Assembly (NCBI RefSeq): GCF_001648155.1
Contig: NZ_CP015199.1
Coordinates: 3,295,001-3,359,000 of the forward strand
Length of the DNA stretch: 64,000 nt
DNA from: Chryseobacterium glaciei
Lineage (GTDB): Bacteria; Bacteroidota; Bacteroidia; Flavobacteriales; Weeksellaceae
Reading direction: 5' to 3'
The notes beneath the pieces were generated by a model. It ran no database searches, was not told the DNA's origin, and saw nothing but the letters and a program-made list of their open reading frames with translations. Shown here one piece after another: positions 37,973-60,529 of this stretch. Made by a program: the position numbers and the translations under genes. Numbering within the stretch: the first letter of the stretch is position 1; every line of letters starts with the position of its first letter.

Positions 37973-38380
37973 TTATTTTTTTCCTTGATTTTTTAGTATT
38001 TCAAGCATTTCACGGAGTAGCTCATTTTCTCTTTTAAGAGCGTCATTTTCGTTATGAAGAATGTCATTACTGTGCATTACTTGAGTAATGTTCGAATTAT
38101 TATTTCCGATTTTCTGATATCCAACATTATTATCATTCCCATTTACATTATTTATTGTTTCGGATAAATACCTTTCTCCAAGACCTAAAATCAGCCAATT
38201 AGGATCGATATTAAGCTTCGTGCATAATTTGAATATAAACTGAAAGCCTGGAAAGGAAGAGCCATTTATATAATTTGAGATAGAAGTATCACTTGTTTCA
38301 ATACTTTTCCCAAATTTTGTTAGGTTTCCTTCAAATAATTCTTCTGATAAAATTTTAATCCTATCCTTTAATTCGCTCAT
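37973..38380 (-). CDS. Phage repressor-like XRE protein
   Basis: A 135-aa DNA-binding protein: HTH (about 15-60, LTKFGKSIETSDTSISNYIN, then FIFKLCTKLNIDPNWLILGL), an Asn-rich linker and a C-terminal coiled coil (LKRENELLREMLEILK). Its leftward orientation facing a rightward promoter and early genes is the usual lysogeny-switch layout, so it is probably the prophage repressor. It has no peptidase domain, so induction would not be LexA-like. Confidence 0.85.
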   Translation of the reverse strand: MSELKDRIKILSEELFEGNLTKFGKSIETSDTSISNYINGSSFPGFQFIFKLCTKLNIDPNWLILGLGERYLSETINNVNGNDNNVGYQKIGNNNSNITQVMHSNDILHNENDALKRENELLREMLEILKNQGKK

Positions 38381-39265: not shown

Positions 39266-39348
39266 GGGGAGATAGCTTAGTCAGGATAGAGCAAGGGTGG
39301 CCACATTAACATGATCCTAAGGCGAGGGTTCGAATCCCTCTCTCTCCA
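39266..39348 (+). tRNA. tRNA-like gene with enlarged anticodon loop
   Basis: Acceptor GGGGAGA pairs with TCTCTCC (39341-39347), with A73. The D-arm is GCTT/GAGC, and the T-arm GAGGG-TTCGAAT-CCCTC is perfect. The anticodon stem AGGGT/ATCCT encloses a 15-base loop instead of 7, so no anticodon can be read. It is not a normal tRNA: either a pseudogene, an intron-like insertion or a tRNA mimic. Confidence 0.6.
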
Positions 39349-39349
39349 C

Positions 39350-39386: not shown

Positions 39387-39452
39387 AATGATTCTCATAT
39401 TTTAATTTGATTTTTTCATGTTTAATTTGAGTTTTCATGGTTATTAGTTTTT

Positions 39453-39475
39453 GCCCGGTTTCGGCCGGGCTTTTT
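39453..39475 (+). terminator. Terminator between tRNA-like genes
   Basis: GCCCGG-tttcgg-CCGGGC followed by TTTTT. Confidence 0.85.
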
Positions 39476-39480
39476 AAAAT

Positions 39481-39551
39481 GCTTGGATGATGTAATGGTA
39501 GCATGATGGTCTCCAAAACCATTCGTAAAGGTTCGAATCCTTTTCCTCGTG
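39481..39551 (+). tRNA. tRNA-Trp(CCA)-like gene with weak acceptor stem
   Basis: Anticodon arm ATGGT-CTCCAAA-ACCAT gives a CCA anticodon (Trp). The T-arm AAAGG-TTCGAAT-CCTTT is perfect, the D-arm short, and the discriminator G73 matches bacterial tRNA-Trp. The acceptor stem GCTTGGA/TCCTCGT has two mismatches (3-70, 4-69). The CCA tail is not encoded. It may be functional with a host enzyme or be a decoy. Confidence 0.65.
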
Positions 39552-39592
39552 CGATTCTCATGTTTAATGAGTTTTCATGGTTATTAGTTTCT

Positions 39593-39624
39593 GCCCGGCT
39601 AGCAAAATGCTGGTCGGGTTTTAT
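39593..39624 (+). terminator. Terminator after second tRNA-like gene
   Basis: CCCGGCTAGCA-aaa-TGCTGGTCGGG (G-T pairs and one mismatch) followed by TTTTATT. Confidence 0.75.
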
Positions 39625-39644: not shown

Positions 39645-39842
39645 ATGGATCTAAAAGTAAAAGAGTTTGTAAACTCTTATAAAAACAAACCCCTTCCTAA
39701 TTTAACAATTGGTGAGTTTATAAAGCATCATAATCATGAAATTAACAGGACCTGTCCAAAGTGCGGATCTATCGAAGATTTACGAAAAACCTCATGCTGT
39801 ACTTCTTGTGGAACTCAGTTATTAAATCAAAACATTAAATAA
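39645..39842 (+). CDS. Small zinc-ribbon protein
   Basis: A 65-aa protein with two CxxC knuckles (CPKCGS and CTSCGT) at the C-terminus, a probable zinc ribbon. It is eight bases before the first DGR target gene and on the same strand, so it could belong to that operon. Function unknown. Confidence 0.7.
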   Translation: MDLKVKEFVNSYKNKPLPNLTIGEFIKHHNHEINRTCPKCGSIEDLRKTSCCTSCGTQLLNQNIK

Positions 39843-39849
39843 ATATAAA

Positions 39850-40335
39850 ATGAACATTTTAGAAATTACAAAAGAAGCGGCTTTAAAAGCACATAAAGAA
39901 GCTTCACCGAAAGGTAAAATTTTACTAGAAAATCTTTTTGGAGGAAAAGTATTCTTACAAAAAATTACTGACCGTATTAAAAGTATCGATGACGCAGTGG
40001 GGGAACTTGGAGAAGATGATCCGGATGTAATTCATTATTTAAAGCTTGAAGCTTCAGGTATTAACGGTCATATACTTTACTCTCAGATGCTTGTAGTTAT
40101 CACTAAAGCTTTGAATGAAGAATACACACCTGATTGGAATAATGGCGAGTGGGATAAATGGTATAACTGGTTTAATATGAGTTCGTCCTCGTCTGGTCGG
40201 TTCTCGTTCGGCGGCTCCGCTGCTCGGGGCTCGCTTTCGTATTGCGGCTCTCGCCTTTGCTTCAAATCAAAAGAGTTGGCACAGTATGCAGCAAAACAAT
40301 TCATTGATATCTACGAAAAAGCATTCACAATTTAA
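39850..40335 (+). CDS. DGR target protein 1 (variable protein)
   Basis: A 161-aa protein without a signal peptide. It shares with the next two genes a middle motif LNEEYTPDWNNGEWDKWYNWF, then the variable repeat (40182-40260) coding SSSSGRFSFGGSAARGSLSY and CGSRLCFKS, then a conserved helical tail (KELAQYAAKQFIDIYEKAF). Compared with the template repeat, all differences in the core are at template adenines. The variable part is internal, followed by about 27 constant residues. Function unknown; binding of a variable partner is the inference. Confidence 0.85.
   Translation: MNILEITKEAALKAHKEASPKGKILLENLFGGKVFLQKITDRIKSIDDAVGELGEDDPDVIHYLKLEASGINGHILYSQMLVVITKALNEEYTPDWNNGEWDKWYNWFNMSSSSSGRFSFGGSAARGSLSYCGSRLCFKSKELAQYAAKQFIDIYEKAFTI
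40182..40260 (+). repeat. DGR variable repeat VR1
   Basis: 79 nt aligned without gaps to the template 41228-41306. The first 28 bases contain no adenine and are identical in all copies. Of nine mismatches, eight are at template A (five to G and others to C or T) and one is a T-to-C at the last base. The 3' part TTGCGGCTCTCGCCTTTGC is shared by VR1-3 and is the likely initiation (IMH) end. Confidence 0.88.
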
Positions 40336-40345
40336 TTTATAAAAA

Positions 40346-40804
40346 ATGGAAATATTAAAAATTCAAGTACCTGAAGGATTTCAAATTGACAGCTTTGATA
40401 AAAGCACAGGCGAAATAAAGTTCGCTCCAAAACCAAAGGATATTAAAGAAAGAATAAAGCATTTTGATGATGTTTTATTATATCATGGTATCAACTCGGA
40501 TGTGTTCAAAAAAGAATGTTCGTTTCTGACAGATGATGAGATTGCTTACAGACAGTTAAGATTGATTGTATCGGCTTTAAATGAAGACTTTCCGCCAGAT
40601 TGGCAAAATAATAATCAGTGGAAATATTTTCCTTGGTTTGATATGGACGATTCGTCCTCGTCTGGTCGGTTCTCGTTCTACGGCTCCGATTATCAGAGCT
40701 CGGATTCGTTTTGCGGCTCTCGCCTTTGCTTTAAATCTCGCGAATTGTGTGATTATGCAGCCACAACATTCATAGAAATTTATAGAAAATTTTTCACAAT
40801 TTAA
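40346..40804 (+). CDS. DGR target protein 2 (variable protein)
   Basis: A 152-aa paralogue of target 1, 10 bp downstream. It has its own N-terminus (MEILKIQVPEGFQIDSFDKS), the shared ALNEDFPPDW...KYFPWFDM region, variable repeat 40651-40729 (SSSSGRFSFYGSDYQSSDSF) and the helical tail. Its variable repeat has several changes at template bases other than A, so it may derive from an earlier template. Confidence 0.85.
   Translation: MEILKIQVPEGFQIDSFDKSTGEIKFAPKPKDIKERIKHFDDVLLYHGINSDVFKKECSFLTDDEIAYRQLRLIVSALNEDFPPDWQNNNQWKYFPWFDMDDSSSSGRFSFYGSDYQSSDSFCGSRLCFKSRELCDYAATTFIEIYRKFFTI
40651..40729 (+). repeat. DGR variable repeat VR2
   Basis: 79 nt aligned without gaps to the template. Six of nine template adenines are changed, but six mismatches in codons 1, 4, 5, 7 and 9 after the constant part are at G or C of the present template, plus T-to-C at the last base. 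Confidence 0.8.
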
Positions 40805-40816
40805 AATATACACAAA

Positions 40817-41197
40817 ATGTCAAATATCACAGAAAAAGTAAAAAATTACGAAGATGCCTGTAAGGTTCTTAACAGAGAAACAACACTTCCGGATTTCAGT
40901 ATGATCCCTGAAAAGGATAGAAAACCATTAATAGCACATTTTAAACTCACGGTTATTTGCGAGGCGCTTAATGAAGGTCATATCCATGATTGGAATAATG
41001 GAAAGTGGGATAAGTGGTATCCTTGGTTTTATATGTTTGGTTCGTCCTCGTCTGGTCGGTTCTCGTTCGGCGGCTCCGCTGATCTGGGCTCGCGTTCGTT
41101 TTGCGGCTCTCGCCTTTGCTTTAAATCTGAAAAACTGGCAGATTATGCAGGAAAACAGTTTGAGCAGTTGTATAGAGAATATTTCGTGATCGATTAA
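40817..41197 (+). CDS. DGR target protein 3 (variable protein)
   Basis: A 126-aa paralogue of targets 1 and 2 (ALNEGHIHDWNNGKWDKWYP, variable repeat 41041-41119 coding SSSSGRFSFGGSADLGSRSF, tail KLADYAGKQFEQLYREYF). It is the nearest target to the template and reverse transcriptase. Its N-terminal part is the shortest of the three, which suggests the variable half plus the W-rich motif is the functional core. Confidence 0.85.
   Translation: MSNITEKVKNYEDACKVLNRETTLPDFSMIPEKDRKPLIAHFKLTVICEALNEGHIHDWNNGKWDKWYPWFYMFGSSSSGRFSFGGSADLGSRSFCGSRLCFKSEKLADYAGKQFEQLYREYFVID
41041..41119 (+). repeat. DGR variable repeat VR3
   Basis: 79 nt aligned without gaps to the template. Nine mismatches: eight at template adenines (A to G or T) and the T-to-C at the last base shared by all VRs. 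Confidence 0.88.
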
Positions 41198-41202
41198 AAA
41201 AA

Positions 41203-41334
41203 AAGGTTGTATGGTGTTTGGGTTTAGTTCGTCCTCGTCTGGTCGGTTCTCGTTCGGCGACTCCGCTGATCAGGACTCGCATTCGTATTGCAGCTCTCAC
41301 CTATGTAGCAAAAAATAAAAGTACCATAAACCTT
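41203..41334 (+). ncRNA. DGR template RNA region with flanking inverted repeat
   Basis: AAGGTT-g-TATGGT (41203-41215) and ACCATAAACCTT (41323-41334) are complementary with one bulged G, enclosing the template repeat. A second small hairpin TTACC-tctc-GGTAA (41333-41346) follows. The structure suggests a folded, protected template RNA. A 35-codon frame (41211-41318) runs through it but is probably not translated. Confidence 0.6.
41228..41306 (+). repeat. DGR template repeat (TR)
   Basis: 79-nt non-coding copy of the variable repeats, between the last target gene and the reverse transcriptase, the usual DGR order. It contains nine adenines, all in its second half (GAC, GAT, CAG, GAC, CAT, TAT, AGC, CAC, CTA codon contexts), at which the VRs differ. 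The 3' end TTGCAGCTCTCACCTATGT corresponds to an IMH*-like variant of the VR end. Confidence 0.85.
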
Positions 41335-41414
41335 ACCTCTCGGTAAAAAATAAAAAACTTTCCAAAGGGCGTTGGTAGGATTTTCCGAAAACGACTTTTT
41401 TTAAAGCAAAGGCT

Positions 41415-42392
41415 ATGAAAAGATTGAATAATTTATTCTCACAGATCATTAGTATAGAAAACTTAATAAAAGCTGACGAAAAGGCACAGAAAGGCAAGAT
41501 AAGGCAATACGGTGTGCGTATTCATAACAAAAATAAAAAAGAAAATATACTGAAGCTTCACGATTTATTGATAAGTAAAAATTATAAAACTTCACAGTAT
41601 GATATTTTTAAGGTTTTTGAGCCAAAAGAGCGTGATGTTTACCGTCTTCCATATTATCCGGACAGAATATGCCATCATGCAATAATGAATGTTTTAGAGC
41701 CTGTTTTTGTGGCTGTATTTACAGCAGATTCTTACAGTTGTATAAAAGGTCGTGGAATTCATAAAGCTTCATCAAATCTAAGGAAATCATTAAGAAATCA
41801 ACATGAAACTACTTTCTGCTTAAAACTGGATATAAAAAAGTTTTATCCGAATATTGATCATAATATTTTGAAGATTTTATTACGTAGAAAATTTAAAGAT
41901 TTTGATCTTCTATGGTTGCTTGATGAAATCATCGACAGCGCACCCGGACTTCCAATAGGAAATTATCTTAGTCAGTATTTGGCAAACTTCTACCTAACTT
42001 ATTTTGATCATTGGATAAAGGAGAATTTAAAGATTAAGTATTATTTCAGATATGCTGATGATATAGTAATTCTACATCATGACAAAGGCTATTTGCATCA
42101 ACTTTTAAAGGATATTGAAAGGTATTTTAAATTCAATTTAAAACTAGAAGTTAAAAATAACTGGCAGGTTTTTCCGGTTGCAAAACGAGGAATTGACTTT
42201 GTAGGATATAAGCATTACCATTCGCATGTATTATTAAGAAAATCAATAAAAAAAAGATTTGCAAAGATGATGAAGAAAAATCCGAACAAATCGTCACTAG
42301 CATCTTATATGGGCTGGGCTAAACATTGTAATTCCCGGAACTTACTAAAAAAACTAACAACAGATGTTCAACTTCAAAGATTTAAACATTAA
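41415..42392 (+). CDS. DGR-type reverse transcriptase
   Basis: A 325-aa RNA-dependent DNA polymerase of the DGR group. The N-terminal MKRLNNLFSQIISIENLIKA fits DGR RTs. Motif A is LKLDIKKFYP (D139), the DGR-specific motif 4 is GLPIGNYLSQ (178-187), and the catalytic YADD is at 213-216, with GIDFVGYKHY near the thumb. No other enzyme domain is fused. It would copy the template RNA with errors at adenines. It overlaps the next gene by 29 bp. Confidence 0.92.
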   Translation: MKRLNNLFSQIISIENLIKADEKAQKGKIRQYGVRIHNKNKKENILKLHDLLISKNYKTSQYDIFKVFEPKERDVYRLPYYPDRICHHAIMNVLEPVFVAVFTADSYSCIKGRGIHKASSNLRKSLRNQHETTFCLKLDIKKFYPNIDHNILKILLRRKFKDFDLLWLLDEIIDSAPGLPIGNYLSQYLANFYLTYFDHWIKENLKIKYYFRYADDIVILHHDKGYLHQLLKDIERYFKFNLKLEVKNNWQVFPVAKRGIDFVGYKHYHSHVLLRKSIKKRFAKMMKKNPNKSSLASYMGWAKHCNSRNLLKKLTTDVQLQRFKH

Positions 42393-42660
42393 ACCGAAAG
42401 AAAACACATTTATAGGAAAAAAAATTGAAATAGACGATATTTTAAATATAGAAGTCATCATTCACGGATTTGAAATAAAAGATTCAACAAAAAAAGCAGG
42501 AACAAAGTATCTCACTTTACAAGTTGAAAAAGAGGAAAATAAAAGAGTGGTATTTACGGGATCAAAAAATTTGATGGATCTAATTTCCCAAGTTCCTGAA
42601 GATAAATTTCCCTTCAAAACAACAATTAAGAAAAACGATAAACGATTATTATTTACCTAG
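42364..42660 (+). CDS. Small OB-like phage protein
   Basis: A 98-aa protein overlapping the 3' end of the RT gene in another frame. Mixed strands (KYLTLQVEKEENKRVVFTGS, then FPFKTTIKKNDKRLLFT) are consistent with an OB-like single-strand-binding fold. It could serve the phage replication module or the retroelement; it does not look like the usual helical accessory protein Avd. No known name. Confidence 0.65.
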   Translation: MFNFKDLNIKPKENTFIGKKIEIDDILNIEVIIHGFEIKDSTKKAGTKYLTLQVEKEENKRVVFTGSKNLMDLISQVPEDKFPFKTTIKKNDKRLLFT

Positions 42661-43458: not shown

Positions 43459-46400
43459 ATGGCATATATAAAACAAGAATTTATAGATAAAGTACTGCAG
43501 GATGCAGATATTATAGAAGTTTTTCACACGTACGAAGATCCGGTTAAAAAGCGTGGTGTTAATTATTTTTGTAAATCTCCATTCACAGACGAAAAATCAG
43601 CAAGCTGCTGTGTTAACCCTACAACACAATTATTCAAAGATTTTAGTTCCGGAAAAGCCGGAAATATATGGACCTACATCATGCATAAAAACAATTGTTC
43701 TTATGTAGAAGCAATTGAAGACCTAGCTAAAAAACAAGGGAAAACCATTGAGTATGAAAATCCGGAGGTTGCAGAAAAAATTAAACTTAAAAAAGAAAAA
43801 GAACAAAATCTCCGTAAATACTTAGATGCTTTACTTGTTAAATTTCAAAATAAACTTTTTAAGTTAGAAAGATCACACCCGGCATGGCTCGAAATAAAAA
43901 GACGTGGATACTCCGATGAAGATGTAAAAGACTGGGGTCTTGGTTATGCTCCGGGAAACTACTTCATGTATGATCTATTTTCTGAAGCCGGGAATGTTGA
44001 AGCCGGTAAAAAATTAGGATTAATCAACGATGCGAATGCAGATAAGCTTTTTAACAAGCTTGTTTATCCAATTCGTGATGAGCGCGGCCAACTTACAGGA
44101 TTCGCCTCCAGAAGGCTTGATAATAACGATGATTATGCCAAGTGGATGAATCCATCTGAAAATGAGCTTTATGACAAAAAACAAACGCTTTACGGCCTTA
44201 ATATCGCTAAAAATGCTATCGTAAAACAAAATAGAGTCTGGATTGTTGAAGGATATAACGATGTCATCGCCTGGCATCTTTGTGGCCAGGAAAATACTGT
44301 TGCAGTAAGTGGAACTGCCTTTACCATCGAACAGATGAAAAAGCTGAAGAAGCTCACTTCAAAGATCACTTTATGTTTAGACGGTGACGCTGCAGGACAA
44401 AAAAAAGTTTCTCAATATGTAGCGAAACTTTTAGAGCTCGGTTTTGCGGTTGAAGTTTGTTTTTTACCAAATGATCTGGATCCGGATGACTATAGCAGAA
44501 TTATTCCTCCGGAAGATGTTTGCCGGAGATTAATATCTGAAGACATAAATCTTTCGAAGTCCCTGCAACCCTACATTACCAATGGGTTTGAAGTTTTCCT
44601 GAAGGAAAAAAATAAGGGTGATGAATTGGATCGAACAAATGGGATCCGGGAGATTATAAAAACTATCTCCAGAATTCCTGATATCGCATTGAGAAATCTT
44701 TATTCTGAGCGCCTTCAAAAAGAAGCCAAAGTAAAGCCTGCTCTTATCAAAGAACTCCTCCGTGAGCAAGAGGCTGAGCAGGTGAAAATTTTAAACGCAG
44801 CATCTGAGAAATTTGTACGGCCATACGGAGTTACCATGTCTTTTGAGGACATTGAACCGCTTGTAGATAAATACGAATTGTTCATTGACAATAATCAGAT
44901 CTACATGCAGGATTCTTATTCGTGGCCAATAACATTTGAGAGCGTTTCAAACTTTAGTATTGAGATCCTGCAGCACATGAATGACGATAAGTTTCCTAAA
45001 AAACTTCTTCGTGTCTGTAATACTGATAATGAAGAGAGAATCTTTGATGTGCCAGCAAATACGCTGAACTCTCTCCAGAGATTTGAAGATGCTTTATCGG
45101 ACCAGGGAAATTATGTTTTCTCTGGAGATACAAAACATTTAAGAAAACTTAAAACTTATCTATTCGATAAAATGGGAGTCGGCCGAAAGGTTGATATATT
45201 GGGTTGGAACCCCGAAGGTTTCTTTTGTTGGAATAATTCAGTTACGATTCCCGGAAAGCCGAGTATCCCAATCAACAAAGACGGAATCTTCCATTTTGAC
45301 GGCCATACATACTATGTTCCGTCGGCCAATGAAATCTATAAAACGAATCCATACCGCTTTCAGCAACAGAAGAAATTAGTCCTGAAGACTGTGAGCTTTA
45401 GTATAGAAGATTACCTGTCACAAATGTATAAAGTGCACAGAGAATTTGCGATACCTGGGATTTTATTTGCGTTCGCTACAGCACATCAGGATATCATATT
45501 TGATGTTGCAAAAGGTTTTCCGGAGTTTTTCCTGTATGGTCCGGCTTCTACCGGAAAAGATCAATTATTCAGCTGTATAAAGAGAATGTTCGGATTTACT
45601 GAAACCGATCTAATTTCTCTGGAAAACGGGCAATCTACCGGTAAGGCAAAACTGAGATCCTTTGCAGAATTTTCAAACATGGTTGTGCATTTATCAGAGT
45701 ACACCAATTCAAACCGGGATAATGTTGGAATGCTAAAGGAACTATGGGGTAAAAACGGTTATAAAATTGGTACCATGGACTCTAAAGTATCTACCGATAT
45801 GATTCCGATTCTTTGTTCGGCTATGATCACCGGGAATGAATATCCTATGGATGTGCCGTTAATGAGCCGTTTGGTTTTTGGAGAGATGAAAAAATATATA
45901 TTCAATGATCAGGAAGTTGAAGAATATAAAAAATTGGCTAAAATGCTGACAGAAACTGTTACGAGCTTCATGGATAAGGTGATATGGCAACGTACTGCGT
46001 TCGTAGACAATTTCTCTGACAAATTTAATTTATACAAGAAAACATTATCAAAGCGTCCGGCATTTGTTGGGGCTATTGACCGTATCATCACAAATTTTGC
46101 GGTTTTGGGTGCAACCTATGAGATTTTAAGAGATGCCAATGTATTTATATTCCCATTCTCATTAGATGATATGCTGAAGGCCTTTGACGACCTCGCAGCT
46201 AATTTACGGAGCAAGATTTCATCAGCGTCAATATTTATCAAGTTCTGGCAGCTGTTTATGGTGGCGCTTCGTGGCAATTCAGTAACACAGCTGAAGGAAG
46301 GTAGAGATTATAAAATTGATGGAGATATCCTATATATCCAGTTTACTTCAGTGTTTTCCAGAATTCAAACTGAGTGGTTCCCAAGATTTAATGAAGGCTG

Positions 46401-46731
46401 CCCTGGTATCAGAACATTCCAGGATGAAATCAAAAACGAAAGCTATTTCATTGAAGCAACTAAGAAACGTATGGAAATTGAAGAGAAGGAAGAACCTGGG
46501 ACACCGTATGATCAGAAGTTAAAGAAGAAAGAGAAAAGCAATTCAGCATCGGTATATGCACTTGATCTGACTAAAATGCCAGCAGATACAAAGGACGATA
46601 TCGAAAATGCAATCTATTGGCAGCGACAAGGTCGGAATCCGAACGGAAATCTGTTCGATCCCCTGCAACCCCTTTTACAAAACAATGGGTTAAAAACAAG
46701 TGATCACGAAGATGTCATAAATCGAGTTTAA
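43459..46731 (+). CDS. Phage primase-helicase
   Basis: A 1,090-aa replication protein. An N-terminal DnaG/CHC2-like zinc-binding part (about 1-100; FCKSPFTDEKSASCCVNPTT, FKDFSSGKAGN) is followed by a Toprim domain (about 262-345; WIVEGYNDVIAW, LCLDGDAAGQKK), then a middle region and a P-loop ATPase (GPASTGKDQL, about 694-701; EYTNSNRD, ITGNEYP) of superfamily 3-like helicase type. It would prime and unwind phage DNA. The iteron-like array lies just after it. Confidence 0.88.
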   Translation: MAYIKQEFIDKVLQDADIIEVFHTYEDPVKKRGVNYFCKSPFTDEKSASCCVNPTTQLFKDFSSGKAGNIWTYIMHKNNCSYVEAIEDLAKKQGKTIEYENPEVAEKIKLKKEKEQNLRKYLDALLVKFQNKLFKLERSHPAWLEIKRRGYSDEDVKDWGLGYAPGNYFMYDLFSEAGNVEAGKKLGLINDANADKLFNKLVYPIRDERGQLTGFASRRLDNNDDYAKWMNPSENELYDKKQTLYGLNIAKNAIVKQNRVWIVEGYNDVIAWHLCGQENTVAVSGTAFTIEQMKKLKKLTSKITLCLDGDAAGQKKVSQYVAKLLELGFAVEVCFLPNDLDPDDYSRIIPPEDVCRRLISEDINLSKSLQPYITNGFEVFLKEKNKGDELDRTNGIREIIKTISRIPDIALRNLYSERLQKEAKVKPALIKELLREQEAEQVKILNAASEKFVRPYGVTMSFEDIEPLVDKYELFIDNNQIYMQDSYSWPITFESVSNFSIEILQHMNDDKFPKKLLRVCNTDNEERIFDVPANTLNSLQRFEDALSDQGNYVFSGDTKHLRKLKTYLFDKMGVGRKVDILGWNPEGFFCWNNSVTIPGKPSIPINKDGIFHFDGHTYYVPSANEIYKTNPYRFQQQKKLVLKTVSFSIEDYLSQMYKVHREFAIPGILFAFATAHQDIIFDVAKGFPEFFLYGPASTGKDQLFSCIKRMFGFTETDLISLENGQSTGKAKLRSFAEFSNMVVHLSEYTNSNRDNVGMLKELWGKNGYKIGTMDSKVSTDMIPILCSAMITGNEYPMDVPLMSRLVFGEMKKYIFNDQEVEEYKKLAKMLTETVTSFMDKVIWQRTAFVDNFSDKFNLYKKTLSKRPAFVGAIDRIITNFAVLGATYEILRDANVFIFPFSLDDMLKAFDDLAANLRSKISSASIFIKFWQLFMVALRGNSVTQLKEGRDYKIDGDILYIQFTSVFSRIQTEWFPRFNEGCPGIRTFQDEIKNESYFIEATKKRMEIEEKEEPGTPYDQKLKKKEKSNSASVYALDLTKMPADTKDDIENAIYWQRQGRNPNGNLFDPLQPLLQNNGLKTSDHEDVINRV

Positions 46732-49222: not shown

Positions 49223-50035
49223 ATGCACGGACTTAATTTTTTTAATACGCCACTGGCAATAGATCAATCTTTTCTATTGTCGTTTCTAACTGAATTTGTT
49301 TTAGGTGTTAAAACAAATACTCTTCTATCTGCAACGCAGGTAGAATCTAATTTCATTAAGTCCCTGGATACTCAGATGAGTATGAGCTCCGGTTCTGGAG
49401 CAAACAAATACCCGGTGGTATTTGATATCGTCGGACCAATCGTAAAATATTCCACTTACAGCATTTTAGGAACGCAGACCATGCAAAGCATTCTCCGTTC
49501 CATTGATCGCAATCCGAATGTTTCCGGAGTGATGTTCAATATCGACTCCGGAGGCGGTCAAGTTTCCGGTACTGCAGAATTCGCAGACTTTATCAAAAAC
49601 ATGCAAAAACCGACAATGTCCTTCACTTCAGAAATGCAGTGCAGTGCTGCCGAATGGATAGGTTCTGCCTGTGATGTGAGAGTTGCGAGCCCTTTTGCCA
49701 GTCACATCGGAAGTATCGGAACCTTCATGAACTTTCAGGATTTCTCTGCAATGTTCGAAAAATGGGGTGCAAAAATCTACGAGATCTATGCTCCTCAATC
49801 CACTGAGAAGAATGCTGATTTCAAAGAATTAATAAAGGGTAACGAAAAGCCTTATCAGCAACGCCTTGCTACAATAACAGAAGAATTTATCTCGACCATA
49901 CAAGCCAATTACGGCGAAAAATTAACTGATGACGGTCATGTTTTCAAAGGAAAGACATACAACGCACAGGAGGCTCTAAAAATTGGCTTGGTGGACGAAA
50001 TTTTAACAAAAGAACAAGCATTAGCAAAATTTTAA
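49223..50035 (+). CDS. S49-family prohead protease
   Basis: A 270-aa serine protease of the SppA/ClpP-fold type often used for prohead maturation. The motifs are VMFNIDSGGGQVSGTAEFAD and the nucleophile S141 in CSAAEWIGSA, followed by HIGSIGTFMNF. It directly precedes a scaffold-like gene and the capsid gene, the usual protease-scaffold-capsid order. Confidence 0.88.
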   Translation: MHGLNFFNTPLAIDQSFLLSFLTEFVLGVKTNTLLSATQVESNFIKSLDTQMSMSSGSGANKYPVVFDIVGPIVKYSTYSILGTQTMQSILRSIDRNPNVSGVMFNIDSGGGQVSGTAEFADFIKNMQKPTMSFTSEMQCSAAEWIGSACDVRVASPFASHIGSIGTFMNFQDFSAMFEKWGAKIYEIYAPQSTEKNADFKELIKGNEKPYQQRLATITEEFISTIQANYGEKLTDDGHVFKGKTYNAQEALKIGLVDEILTKEQALAKF

Positions 50036-55966: not shown

Positions 55967-56551
55967 ATGGATATTGTAAAATTCACTAAAGACAGCATTT
56001 TTCAAAAGATAAAGGCTTGGTATATTGATGAGAGTTCGGTTACTCTCAGTGAAAAAGACCTTAAACGTAAAGATAGGATTTCACATGCCTGGAGTCTAAG
56101 AAAGAATAATAAATATTCTCCAAGTCAGGTTATCCAAATAGTAGTAAGAGATCACAACGTATCTGAATCTACTGCTTACAGAGATTATTCGATGGCCATG
56201 AATATTTTCGGTGATCTTGACCAGGTGAATGTTGCAGCTGAGCGACTGATCCTCGCTGAGAGCTACTGGAATCTGTACCAGATGTCTCTTAAAAAAGGTA
56301 ATGAAGAAACCGCCCGAAAATGCCTTGATTCCTATAAATCCCTATTCAACTTTGCTGATACTGAGCAAAAAATTGATCCTAAGAAACTCGAAGCTTCAGT
56401 TTATAAATTGAACCTTCCAAGAGGTGCAAAAAATATGTTGGAGGCTATGTTCCAAACCGGTGTTGCTGATTTCAACAATATTACAGCACAGGATGTCAGC
56501 TGGAAAGAGGTGGATAATAATGAAGAAGATACAGAAGACGATGGCGACTAA
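55967..56551 (+). CDS. Terminase small subunit
   Basis: A 194-aa protein with a HTH-like N-terminal half (KYSPSQVIQIVVRDHNVSES) and an acidic C-terminal tail, overlapping the large terminase start by 11 bp. Position and size make it the DNA-recognising small terminase subunit. Confidence 0.8.
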   Translation: MDIVKFTKDSIFQKIKAWYIDESSVTLSEKDLKRKDRISHAWSLRKNNKYSPSQVIQIVVRDHNVSESTAYRDYSMAMNIFGDLDQVNVAAERLILAESYWNLYQMSLKKGNEETARKCLDSYKSLFNFADTEQKIDPKKLEASVYKLNLPRGAKNMLEAMFQTGVADFNNITAQDVSWKEVDNNEEDTEDDGD

Positions 56552-58106
56552 TTTTTCACAATATAATATGCCTATCCGGGAGGTAACGCTGAACTGGATG
56601 CAGGCTTCTGTAGAGCTGGCAATTAATACCTACAAGATTAAGAATATTACCGTGAAGGCTGCGAGGGGTTCCGGTAAATCTACGATCCTGGGGGGTGCAA
56701 TCCGTACTGCAGTAAAAGAGATGCCACGATCCACTGGTGTAATTGTAGGCGAAACATTCGTACAGATCAAATCCAGAACGCTGCCATCGACCAAAGAAGG
56801 AATGGAGATGTTCGGTCTGTATGAAGGCCTTGATTATGTAGTCGGCAAGTGTGGAAAGGAATTAGGATTTGAGATGCCGTTCCAAGCTCCAGATTCCTGG
56901 CAAAACGTGATCCACTTCAGAAATGGTACAATTGCAGTTATGGTGTCGCTTGACAATCCAAACTCCGGGCGTGGTTTGAATGCCTATTGGGTGATCGGTG
57001 ATGAAGCTGCACTATTGACTTATGAGAGGCTTTATAATAACGTAATTACTACCAACAGGGCTAAGAAGGCGATATTTAAGAATAAGCCAATGCTCCATTC
57101 CCAGATATTTGTTACATCGGTACCGATGACCAAGAAGGGTGACTGGATCCATCACCGGGAGAAGCTGGCCCTCGAAGAAGTTAGAAATAGAGTTCCTTTA
57201 CATCTCAGAAAGCATCTATTTATTAAGGCTAATGCATTCATAAATGCCCATAACCTGAAGGATGGATGGATAGAAGATATGGAGAAAGAAGCTCTATCCA
57301 AGACTTTATTCAACGCTGAGATCATGAACATAGATCCTATTGGAGTACAGGACGGTTTCTATGCTCAGCTAAAGCCAAAGAAGCATTACTACAAGGATAA
57401 GGATAATGAATACCTTATTGACGTCGGTATAGCCGGCGAGTTTAAGCCAAGCTGTAAGTATGACCAGGATCTCGTCCGTAATGTTCCCCTGCAGATGAAT
57501 CTTGACTTTGGTGGTAAAATTAACTGTTTAACAATCTCTCAGTATCTGAAGACTCAGCATAGGGTCAATTTTATCAAGGAATTCTTCAGGAAGAATCCTG
57601 ATATCCTGGATGAATTGATCGATGACTTCATTGAGTATTATGAGCCACATAAAGCGAGCTGTAATGAGGTCCACCTGTACTATGACCGGTATGGTAGCAA
57701 GAAAGAAGCTAACAGTAAGACCACCCTGGCTGAAGATGTAATCAACAGATTAAGAAGGGCCGGTTGGAAGGTTATTGATAAGACCCCTAAAACGAATAAC
57801 CCGCCTCATGCAGCTAAATATACGCTTCTTAACTATATACTATCGGAATCCGATGTTCGTCTTCCTATCGTAAGGATTAATGAAGACAACTGTCCTAACC
57901 TTATCATATCGATGGAGAATGCACCACTGAAAGGTAATGATGCATTCGAGAAAGACAAGTCCTCAGAGCGAAGCACCATCATACTCCAGGAGCATGCCAC
58001 TCACTTCAGTGATACACTTGACTACAACCTATATTGGCAGTTCTGGCACTTGGCTGACAACTACTACAAGTCCTCATTCCCCGTATCGAACCTACTCATC
58101 CCTTAA
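56541..58106 (+). CDS. Terminase large subunit
   Basis: About 521 aa motor for DNA packaging. Walker A is RGSGKST (42-48), Walker B-like VIGDEA (151-156), and the nuclease part begins at MNLDFGGKIN with DRYGSKKEANSK further on. ATG 56541 (MATNFSQYNM) was preferred over the open frame upstream, which overlaps the small subunit. Codons are more GC-rich than in neighbouring genes, suggesting recent acquisition of this module. Confidence 0.92.
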   Translation: MATNFSQYNMPIREVTLNWMQASVELAINTYKIKNITVKAARGSGKSTILGGAIRTAVKEMPRSTGVIVGETFVQIKSRTLPSTKEGMEMFGLYEGLDYVVGKCGKELGFEMPFQAPDSWQNVIHFRNGTIAVMVSLDNPNSGRGLNAYWVIGDEAALLTYERLYNNVITTNRAKKAIFKNKPMLHSQIFVTSVPMTKKGDWIHHREKLALEEVRNRVPLHLRKHLFIKANAFINAHNLKDGWIEDMEKEALSKTLFNAEIMNIDPIGVQDGFYAQLKPKKHYYKDKDNEYLIDVGIAGEFKPSCKYDQDLVRNVPLQMNLDFGGKINCLTISQYLKTQHRVNFIKEFFRKNPDILDELIDDFIEYYEPHKASCNEVHLYYDRYGSKKEANSKTTLAEDVINRLRRAGWKVIDKTPKTNNPPHAAKYTLLNYILSESDVRLPIVRINEDNCPNLIISMENAPLKGNDAFEKDKSSERSTIILQEHATHFSDTLDYNLYWQFWHLADNYYKSSFPVSNLLIP

Positions 58107-58991: not shown

Positions 58992-59198
58992 ATGAAATGG
59001 AAAATCGACCGGACTGAAACCTATTGGTATCAGTCCGGCAGAGACTCCAGGACTTATGTAAAAATTACTTATTGGTATCAAACCGATAGCTGTTTGACAA
59101 AGCAAATAAAGATCAGCTACACGGCTTCTGATGAAGAAAACTTACCGGACTGGACTTTATATGCTCAAAAACGAAATACAAGTTTAGAAAATCACTAA
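58992..59198 (+). CDS. Small phage protein, unknown
   Basis: A 68-aa protein starting MKWKIDRTETYWYQSGRDSR, rich in Tyr/Trp. Its stop overlaps the portal start (TAATG). The frame is open upstream within the preceding gene, but ATG 58992 follows that gene's stop closely. Unknown. Confidence 0.6.
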   Translation: MKWKIDRTETYWYQSGRDSRTYVKITYWYQTDSCLTKQIKISYTASDEENLPDWTLYAQKRNTSLENH

Positions 59199-60529
59199 TG
59201 AAAATTTCAGAAGATATTTATGCCATTGGTGGCAAAAACAATGGAGCTGTACTCGCATTCAATGCAGTAAAAGACCCCATGCATTCTACTTTTAAAACTA
59301 AGAATACTGATACTTTAATCTCCGGAAAATGGCTTCCTTGGGGCGATGATAACTTGTATCCTATAACATTTGAAGCAAAATTAAAGAAAACAGGAGTTGC
59401 TATTGGAGGTCTTGAAGTTTTAACAGCTGCTCATTTTGGAACCGGCTTCCAACTTTATCAAGGTGTAGAAACGGAAGAAGCGATTACTTTTAAAGAACGT
59501 CTAGCTTCTTCATTCCCGGAAATAAATGATTTTTTTACCCGGACCAAATTTAATATTACGATATCTGAAATTATCCTGGATTATGAAACCTGGAGGATCG
59601 CATTCCCGGAATATTTACTTTCTCCAAACGGAGATAAGGTTATATCAATAAGAAGGCTTAAAGCTGCTGATTGTCGTTTCGAAGTTCCGGACAATACCGG
59701 GATCATTAATAATATCGGGGTCAATACGGACTGGGTTAATTATGAAGAGGCAAATACGGTTCCTATCCGTTGCTTTGCTGCGAATATTCCTATTGATGAA
59801 ATTAAAGAATATTGCAGGCAAAAAGGAATTAGGAAATTTACAATTCCGGTTATAGATACTCTATTGGTTGAGAAAACCTATCCTTCCGTTGGATGGCATT
59901 CTTCTTTTAAAAACGGGTGGGTTGACGTTGTCTTATCTCTTCCTGAGTTTAAAAAACAAATGTTCAATCAGCAGCTGAATGTAAAATATGTAATTCATAT
60001 AGCCGACGATTATTTTGCTCACATCTATGGGACTGCCTGGGATAGTTTCAGTGATCAGGAAAAGCAGAAAAAAAGAACTGATCTTGTTGATCTTATCGAT
60101 AATGAGCTGCGTGGTAATAAAGGGGCCGGTAAATCTATCATTTCGCCTTACTTCAGGGATAGAGATTCCGGAGAGATAATCAAGGGAGTTCAGATAGATA
60201 CGATTACACAGCCACAATCAAGTGGCGAATTCTTATTGGATGGCTCCGCTGCCAATTATGAGATATTGACTCCGATGGGGATTGATCCTTGTCTAATCAA
60301 TGGCGGAGCTTTCGGAGGTAAGTCGCTCAGCGGTTCCGGATCCGATAAGCGTGAAGCTTGGACAATTCTTTGTGCCAAATTTCCAATAAAGCAGATTCGC
60401 ACACTGCAGATATTTGAGAACATAAAGTATTGGAATACCTGGGATCCGACCTTATTCGGAAAGTTTCCAAATACCAATCTCACGACTTTGGATAAAAATC
60501 CTAACGGACAGACTAAAATCGTTAATTAA
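59198..60529 (+). CDS. Portal protein
   Basis: A 443-aa protein. WLPWGDDNLYPITFEAKLKK, LQGVETEEAITFKER-like helices and WDSFSDQEKQKKRTDLVDLI with IQIDTITQPQSSGEF-type segments are consistent with a phage portal; length and place between terminase and connector genes agree. Assignment by position and general pattern. Confidence 0.75.
   Translation: MKISEDIYAIGGKNNGAVLAFNAVKDPMHSTFKTKNTDTLISGKWLPWGDDNLYPITFEAKLKKTGVAIGGLEVLTAAHFGTGFQLYQGVETEEAITFKERLASSFPEINDFFTRTKFNITISEIILDYETWRIAFPEYLLSPNGDKVISIRRLKAADCRFEVPDNTGIINNIGVNTDWVNYEEANTVPIRCFAANIPIDEIKEYCRQKGIRKFTIPVIDTLLVEKTYPSVGWHSSFKNGWVDVVLSLPEFKKQMFNQQLNVKYVIHIADDYFAHIYGTAWDSFSDQEKQKKRTDLVDLIDNELRGNKGAGKSIISPYFRDRDSGEIIKGVQIDTITQPQSSGEFLLDGSAANYEILTPMGIDPCLINGGAFGGKSLSGSGSDKREAWTILCAKFPIKQIRTLQIFENIKYWNTWDPTLFGKFPNTNLTTLDKNPNGQTKIVN

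What the first reader, a model, noticed from the sequence alone, without database searches (positions are those of the whole stretch)
39850..42392. Diversity-generating retroelement with three tandem targets in a flavobacterial prophage
Seen: three 79-nt repeats inside three adjacent paralogous genes and a fourth, non-coding copy next to a reverse transcriptase that carries the DGR motif GLPIGNYLSQ. In VR1 and VR3, eight of nine mismatches to the template are at template adenines. Known: DGRs copy a template RNA with errors at A into a variable repeat. Inference: all three genes are diversified from one template.
Basis: partly seen in the sequence, partly recalled or inferred. Interest (0 to 1): 0.92.

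Follow-up and report, generated by a model that had tools for sequence, protein, structure and literature searches.

The report
Gene-diversifying phage cassette, template itself mutated
A Chryseobacterium prophage carries a cassette that rewrites three small genes from one template with errors at adenine; here the template seems to have been hit by the same adenine-directed mutation, which shrank the variety it can make, and in related cassettes a small protein with a predicted DNA-binding-like fold nearly always sits beside the enzyme.

Summary
The finding is a real diversity-generating retroelement (DGR): three paralogous targets with 79-nt variable repeats, a non-coding template repeat (TR, 41228-41306) and a reverse transcriptase with LPIGNYLSQ. 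The inference that all three were written from this template needs correction. VR2 has only 6 of 13 mismatches at template A. Against the A-rich template of a relative (Soonwooa), VR1, VR2 and VR3 mismatch only at A (16/16, 11/11, 16/16); the window's own template differs from it at 9 sites, 8 of them A. The window template has the lowest A fraction of 155. So the template appears to have undergone A-directed mutation itself; VR1 and VR3 were rewritten afterwards, VR2 was not. Possible proteins fall from 1.8e8 to 4096. Whether self-homing or VR-to-TR conversion changed the template is open. Second result: a 98-aa ORF overlapping the RT end has a predicted OB-like fold and is tied to this RT: same 14 places in the same 11 of 320 genomes, and 52 of 53 viral loci.

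The parts
39850..40335 (+). Target gene 1 (161 aa), phrog_11581, function unknown
40182..40260 (+). VR1; 8 of 9 mismatches to TR at A; carries 8 of 8 bases that distinguish the core of the present TR from the Soonwooa-type TR
40346..40804 (+). Target gene 2 (152 aa), phrog_11581
40651..40729 (+). VR2; 6 of 13 mismatches to present TR at A, but 11 of 11 mismatches to the Soonwooa TR at A; carries 2 of the 8 new TR bases
40817..41197 (+). Target gene 3 (126 aa), phrog_11581
41041..41119 (+). VR3; 8 of 9 mismatches to TR at A; carries 8 of 8 new TR bases
41205..41217 (+). 5' arm of the inverted repeat that brackets the template (GGTTG + 8 nt)
41228..41306 (+). Template repeat (TR), 9 A in 79 nt; lowest A fraction of the 155 TRs compared
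41256..41288 (+). Variable core of the TR; 8 sites that are A in the Soonwooa-type TR are not A here (14 A against 6)
41289..41306 (+). IMH*-like 3' end of the TR; A at 41292, 41299 and 41303 differ in the same way in all three VRs (boundary inferred)
41320..41332 (+). 3' arm of the inverted repeat bracketing the template, with its anchor
41415..42392 (+). DGR reverse transcriptase (325 aa), LPIGNYLSQ and YADD, phrog_1423
42364..42660 (+). RT-linked small ORF (98 aa), phrog_19665, predicted OB-like fold; overlaps the RT end by 29 nt; candidate accessory protein

Best explanation
A Bacteroidota phage DGR of the target-TR-RT layout. The TR transcript, its ends probably held together by a conserved stem, is copied by the RT with errors at A; the cDNA replaces the variable repeats of three small paralogous phage genes. 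At some point the template itself received an A-mutagenised copy of the segment upstream of IMH*: 8 of its 14 core adenines became other bases while the rest of the TR stayed as in a relative. VR1 and VR3 were later rewritten from this poorer template (they carry all 8 new bases and are changed at 5 of its 6 remaining core adenines); VR2 still carries a copy of the older one. As this chemistry changes A only, the change is one-way and narrows the reachable proteins. The 98-aa ORF with an OB-like fold is probably the accessory protein of this DGR group and may bind the cDNA or TR RNA. Shown: anatomy, A-bias, nested history relative to a relative's template, RT linkage of the ORF, a predicted fold. 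Inferred: how the template was overwritten, present activity, roles of the ORF, the stem and the targets.
For: TR/VR anatomy. Window VR1/VR2/VR3 against the Soonwooa TR (L209): 16/16, 11/11, 16/16 mismatches at A; window TR against the same TR: 8 of 9 differences at A (P 7.4e-6). VR2's six internal non-A mismatches all fall on those sites (P 2.3e-7). VR1 and VR3 share 8 of 8 new TR bases, VR2 2 of 8. RT tree puts the window beside L311, L298, L302 (88/84), all with A-rich TRs of the same kind. Window TR has the lowest A fraction of 155 TRs (0.125; mean 0.277, s.d. 0.036; next lowest 0.152, L184). 0 of 115 homologous target proteins (120 held, 5 not parsed) carry the amino-acid fingerprint of the A-poor TR; window VR1 and VR3 do, VR2 does not. 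TR-to-TR differences elsewhere are not A-driven (A in the first TR at 2361 of 11162 mismatches, 1181 ordered pairs). Stem: 91 distinct arm pairs, 0.91 paired with own partner against 0.71 with swapped partners (maximum 0.75 of 1000). RT-linked ORF.
Confidence: 0.82

Rival explanations
1. The template was changed by ordinary homologous recombination: a VR already mutated at A converted the TR upstream of IMH* (VR-to-TR gene conversion), not by the DGR machinery acting on its own template. (This rivals one step of the best explanation, the way the template was overwritten.)
For: Gives the same signature: A sites changed, IMH* kept. VRs and TR lie 187 to 1046 nt apart with long identical stretches. 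In the relative L209 each VR has 10 of 14 core A changed (rows), near the 8 of 14 seen in the TR.
Against: In a reconstituted BPP-1 DGR in E. coli TR-VR recombination was rare (PMC12875486, passages). No VR left in the window equals the TR, but donors would have been overwritten.
Confidence: 0.45
2. Ordinary DGR; the VR2 mismatches at non-A are drift or non-A errors and the A-poor template is chance.
For: Non-A substitutions occur in 46.3% of TR-VR pairs in one survey (PMC6642488, passages).
Against: All six internal non-A mismatches of VR2 lie on sites where the relative's TR has A (P 2.3e-7); VR2 against that TR is 11/11 at A; the TR is the most A-poor of 155.
Confidence: 0.06
3. The present TR was acquired by horizontal exchange with another phage that has an A-poor template, and VR1 and VR3 were rewritten from it.
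For: Cassettes move within phages: in L035 the primase homologue lies upstream of the DGR, in the window downstream.
Against: No such TR among the 155 compared and no VR with its fingerprint among 115 proteins; outside the A sites and one edge base the TR equals the Soonwooa TR over 79 nt. It also only moves the A-directed change to another phage.
Confidence: 0.08
4. The cassette is a decaying DGR and no longer active.
For: Template A-poor; another A-poor locus (L107/L218) has no match to the OB-like ORF and has non-A mismatches.
Against: RT ORF intact with YADD; target ORFs, OB-like ORF and stem are intact; VR1 and VR3 were rewritten after the template changed.
Confidence: 0.2

Closest known systems
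CrAssphage LMMB DGR (lineage 3 of Wu et al. 2018, as cited in PMC7290462; passages)
   Same: Target-TR-RT order, no avd in the cassette, IMH/IMH*, RT 48% identical with PIGNYLSQ
   Different: One large tail-collar fibre target there, three small paralogues of unknown function here; the ORF after its RT shows no similarity to the OB-like ORF by profile comparison; its TR has 28 A in 35 codons against 9 A in 79 nt here
Bordetella phage BPP-1 DGR (NC_005357)
   Same: TR, VR, RT with SQ motif (IPIGSLTSQ); A-directed variation (PMC3240598, passages)
   Different: Has avd between target and TR and a tail-protein target (Mtd); no avd-like match among the window ORFs scanned
Soonwooa buanensis DGR (L041, L126, L209; NZ_FUYZ01000001.1)
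   Same: RT 79% identical, same TR outside A sites and one edge base, same target family, same OB-like ORF (82%)
   Different: A-rich TR (17 A in 79 nt against 9); two matching VRs found, 13/13 and 13/13 at A
Bacterial SSB / PriB proteins (e.g. 3pgz, 5wqv)
   Different: No sequence similarity found; gene coupled to the DGR RT

Membership tests
Diversity-generating retroelement | Template repeat and variable repeats whose mismatches lie at template adenines | tested here: met
   VR1 8/9, VR3 8/9; VR2 6/13 against the present TR and 11/11 against the relative's TR
Diversity-generating retroelement | RT with [I/V/L]GxxxSQ in motif 4 (PMC3521204, passages) | tested here: met
   LPIGNYLSQ, YADD
Diversity-generating retroelement | RT groups with DGR RTs and apart from other RT classes | tested here: inconclusive
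   Nested with crAss LMMB and cr55 RTs (80/82) and closer relatives (97/99), but the deep split from other RTs is weak (47/90), two 'other' rows fall on the DGR side on very long branches, and one row labelled 'other' (L009) bears an SQ motif too; nearest phage records are crAss-like RTs, 58%
Diversity-generating retroelement | IMH at the VR 3' end and differing IMH* at the TR | tested here: met
   Sequence only: three TR A sites (41292, 41299, 41303) differ in the same way in all three VRs and in the Soonwooa DGR; function not tested
[quoted passage not shown]
   VR ends 75, 75 and 78 nt before the end of the ORF
Diversity-generating retroelement | C-type lectin fold around the VR (annotated VR regions systematically so, PMC8144416 section 8) | tested here: inconclusive
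   Model of target 3: pLDDT 83 overall, 56-66 in residues 71-100; no PDB match of note
Diversity-generating retroelement | avd accessory gene in the cassette (common, not universal) | tested here: not met
   No avd-like Pfam match in the nine ORFs scanned (ORFs 42922 and 43256 were not scanned); PF05635 has 5 matches elsewhere in the genome, none in the window. Lineage 3 DGRs are reported to lack avd (PMC7290462, passages)
Diversity-generating retroelement | RT-dependent change of VR in living cells | not testable with these tools
   No reads or cultures
OB-fold protein, SSB-like (ORF 42364-42660) | OB fold | tested here: inconclusive
OB-fold protein, SSB-like (ORF 42364-42660) | Binds single-stranded DNA | not tested
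   Needs the purified protein

The most novel reading that the evidence does not exclude
DGR templates can be hit by their own adenine-directed mutagenesis. This is a one-way ratchet that removes adenines and narrows a cassette's reach, and the window preserves the order of events: older template in VR2, changed template in the TR, rewriting of VR1 and VR3. In the same avd-less DGR group an RT-coupled OB-fold protein takes the place of Avd as the cDNA- or RNA-handling partner.
Probability: 0.4. Interest if true: 0.78.

Novelty: new variant of a known kind. Interest (0 to 1): 0.62.

Why it matters
The template is usually taken as the fixed master copy of a DGR (recalled). A natural case in which it carries the DGR's own mutation mark, with VRs written before and after, makes template ageing testable. 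Such templates sit at the edge of what survey filters accept: DiGReF asks for at least 10 A in the TR and 7 changes (PMC3521204, passages), and this TR has 9 A in 79 nt or 10 in the 80 nt, so cases somewhat further along would be missed. The RT-linked ORF with an OB-like fold offers a candidate for the missing accessory factor in avd-less DGRs, of interest for how cDNA reaches its target and for DGR tools.

Tried and rejected
Drift as the cause of the A-poor template: rejected by 8 of 9 changes at A and by the lack of A-bias in other TR pairs (a coarse test, since flanks are counted and even the Soonwooa-window pair, 10 of 13, falls below its 80% cut). A further VR or TR elsewhere in the genome: none. 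The ORF after the RT in crAss cr55_1 and LMMB as a homologue of the OB-like ORF: no similarity; instead nine gut, crAss-type or Versailles loci that I chose have another family, phrog_11557, at that place (A2-A3 probability 0.2). Target fold: no match. PDB sequence profiles for OB-like ORF and target: nothing useful. Target 3 by tblastn in the phage collection: no match. L107/L218 as a second clear case of template mutation: its TR is A-poor (12 of 58), but VR mismatches are 5 of 7 and 7 of 9 at A and the TR also differs from kin at non-A sites, so it is only a possible, older case. Papers: the listings, and passages of the papers opened (sections in 47, 48, 107), showed no report of template self-mutation or of an OB-fold DGR accessory; most listed papers were not opened, and Wu et al. 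2018 is not held, so either may be described there.

Weak points. The pooled A-bias of relatives (4617 of 4727 mismatches, 297 pairs) was collected with a filter allowing at most one non-A mismatch in 45 nt, so it is inflated by selection. The stem test used 112 of 168 loci in which both anchors were found; some anchors are misplaced (e.g. L284, L271, L250), which lowers the score; swapped partners do not control for relatedness. The profile count of the OB-like ORF (152 of 168) uses a profile built from 82 rows taken from the same loci; in 143 of the 152 the frame lies at the usual place, in 9 elsewhere (one upstream of the RT, eight further downstream). In some searches at most 12 or 15 first-look candidates were scored per genome. 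The RT tree has long branches and its own warnings; 6 of 32 intended rows had no usable frame and were dropped, and the planned clade test did not run (wrong method name). One search ended in an error after printing its table; one search failed and was repeated; the regular expression was wrong and was redone. Foldseek on the OB-like model could not be run; only the second-look aligner ran.
Full report
What is there. The window holds, on the + strand, three paralogous ORFs (39850-40335, 40346-40804, 40817-41197), a non-coding repeat (41228-41306) and an RT ORF (41415-42392). The 79-nt repeats differ from the non-coding copy at 9, 13 and 9 sites, of which 8, 6 and 8 are A in that copy. The three targets match phrog_11581 (unknown function) and the RT matches phrog_1423. 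The RT has LPIGNYLSQ and YADD; its nearest phage records are crAss-like RTs (58% and below). Three A sites at the 3' end of the TR differ in the same way in all VRs, as expected of IMH* against IMH.

Where it is. Two contigs of same-genus genomes have the lengths of Chryseobacterium records (G001:C41 and L174, 154846 bases; G219:C5 and L164, 727286 bases), so the genus of the window is inferred to be Chryseobacterium. Phage context: a repressor-like ORF at 37973-38380 (-), a primase at 43459-46731, a head maturation protease at 49223-50035, terminase at 56424-58106 and a weak portal match at 59198-60529. An IMG/VR contig (L033) is identical over 9897 of 9897 bases from window 38493.

Relatives. 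The RT scan of viral contigs gave 326 relatives (80 kept), that of species genomes 73. From the loci held then I kept 168 distinct RT loci, the window included; 157 gave at least one repeat pair, and 129 of 168 had two or more pairs in the TR region. The TR mostly starts about 160 to 200 nt upstream of the RT, further in some gut loci, with the targets before it. Homologues of the three targets were found in 133 to 135 of 167 loci.

The template is odd. Its A fraction, 0.125, is the lowest of 155 (mean 0.277, s.d. 0.036; next 0.152, the distant L184). Soonwooa buanensis (L209; RT 79% identical) has a TR that equals the window TR over 79 nt except at 9 sites, 8 of them A in Soonwooa (P 7.4e-6). 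The window VRs compared with the Soonwooa TR mismatch only at A: 16/16, 11/11, 16/16. VR2's six internal mismatches at non-A bases of the present TR all fall on those 8 sites (P 2.3e-7; VR1 and VR3 have no internal ones; the edge site 41306 differs in all three). VR1 and VR3 carry 8 of 8 of the new bases, VR2 2 of 8. VR1 and VR3 are changed at 13 of the 14 Soonwooa-type core A, VR2 at 8 of 14, as two rounds against one would give. In the RT tree the window sits with L311, L298 and L302 (support 88/84), whose TRs are A-rich and of the same kind; L113 and L276, which are as near or nearer by identity or path, have a TR of another kind. Among 120 homologous target proteins held (211 found), 115 could be parsed and none shows the fingerprint of the A-poor template. 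Other TR-TR pairs show no such A-direction: of 1181 ordered pairs with up to 14 mismatches none passed the cut (at least 4 and 80% at A); A stands in the first TR at 2361 of 11162 mismatches; the pair Soonwooa to window has 10 of 13 at A with flanks included and 0 in reverse.

Reading. The simplest order is: an A-rich template wrote VR2 (and older VRs); an A-mutagenised copy replaced the template upstream of IMH*; VR1 and VR3 were then rewritten from it. The core fell from 14 to 6 adenines, DNA variants from 2.7e8 to 4096 and protein variants from 1.8e8 to 4096. Since the chemistry changes A only, the loss is one-way unless undone by recombination. Two routes fit: retrohoming of cDNA into its own template despite IMH*, or conversion of the TR by a VR. 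I cannot separate them. In BPP-1 the 21-bp IMH element sets the direction of transfer (PMC3240598, passages), and TR-VR recombination was rare in an E. coli system (PMC12875486, passages). The same paper's discussion (section 12 part 1) proposes that cDNA pairs with target strands left single during lagging-strand replication; a template locus could be exposed in the same way (my inference).

A stem around the template. In 112 of 168 loci two anchors, GGTTG upstream and A(A/G)ACC downstream, bracket the TR with 8-nt arms that pair. Over 91 distinct arm pairs, 0.909 of positions 1-8 pair with the own partner against a mean of 0.710 (maximum 0.749) for 1000 partner swaps; several positions use three or more pair types. 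An unanchored search for the best stem was only mildly above shuffles (30 of 156 at or above the 95% level), so the signal comes from position and covariation, not from strength. I read it as the closing stem of the TR RNA.

Targets. They are small (126-161 aa) and lie by the repressor and replication genes; no tail gene was recognised among the 20 ORFs scanned around them. The model of target 3 has no PDB match. In a large survey viral targets of three clades were mostly tail proteins (PMC8144416 sections 8 and 9). What these three bind is unknown; I do not commit beyond ligand-binding proteins that act in the cell or on its surface.

Known or new. Multi-target DGRs are known (about 13% with two targets, up to eight; PMC10743442, passages), as are avd-less target-TR-RT DGRs (PMC7290462, passages). 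The cassette is therefore a member of a known kind; the changed template and the RT-linked ORF with an OB-like fold were not met in the searches named under Tried and rejected.

Noticed in passing
L145, L162, L165, L166, L168, L171, L179, L358, L362 (ORF overlapping the RT 3' end): In gut Bacteroidales-type loci, crAss cr55_1 and Bacteroides phage Versailles the place behind the RT is held by an unrelated small ORF family, phrog_11557 (9 of 9 chosen), of unknown function: a second candidate accessory family.
   Followed up: partly
window 41205-41217 and 41320-41332: Covarying inverted repeat brackets the template in this DGR group.
   Followed up: partly
window 39266-39349 and 39481-39552: tRNA-Val (cac) and tRNA-Trp (cca) genes lie directly before the cassette, with a 31-nt direct repeat at 39428-39458 and 39568-39598 on either side of the second.
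   Followed up: no
L107 / L218 (IMGVR_UViG_3300047547_000350): Another A-poor template, with non-A changes and no match to the OB-like ORF: a possible decaying DGR.
   Followed up: partly
G257:C1 (L211, L215, L217): One genome of the same family carries three copies of this DGR RT, each with its OB-like ORF.
   Followed up: no
L035: The DGR lies on the other side of the primase homologue than in the window, so the cassette moves within related phages.
   Followed up: no
window 39645-39842: Small zinc-ribbon-like ORF just upstream of target 1, below Pfam cut-offs; no homologue seen in the 167 relatives within the flanks held.
   Followed up: no
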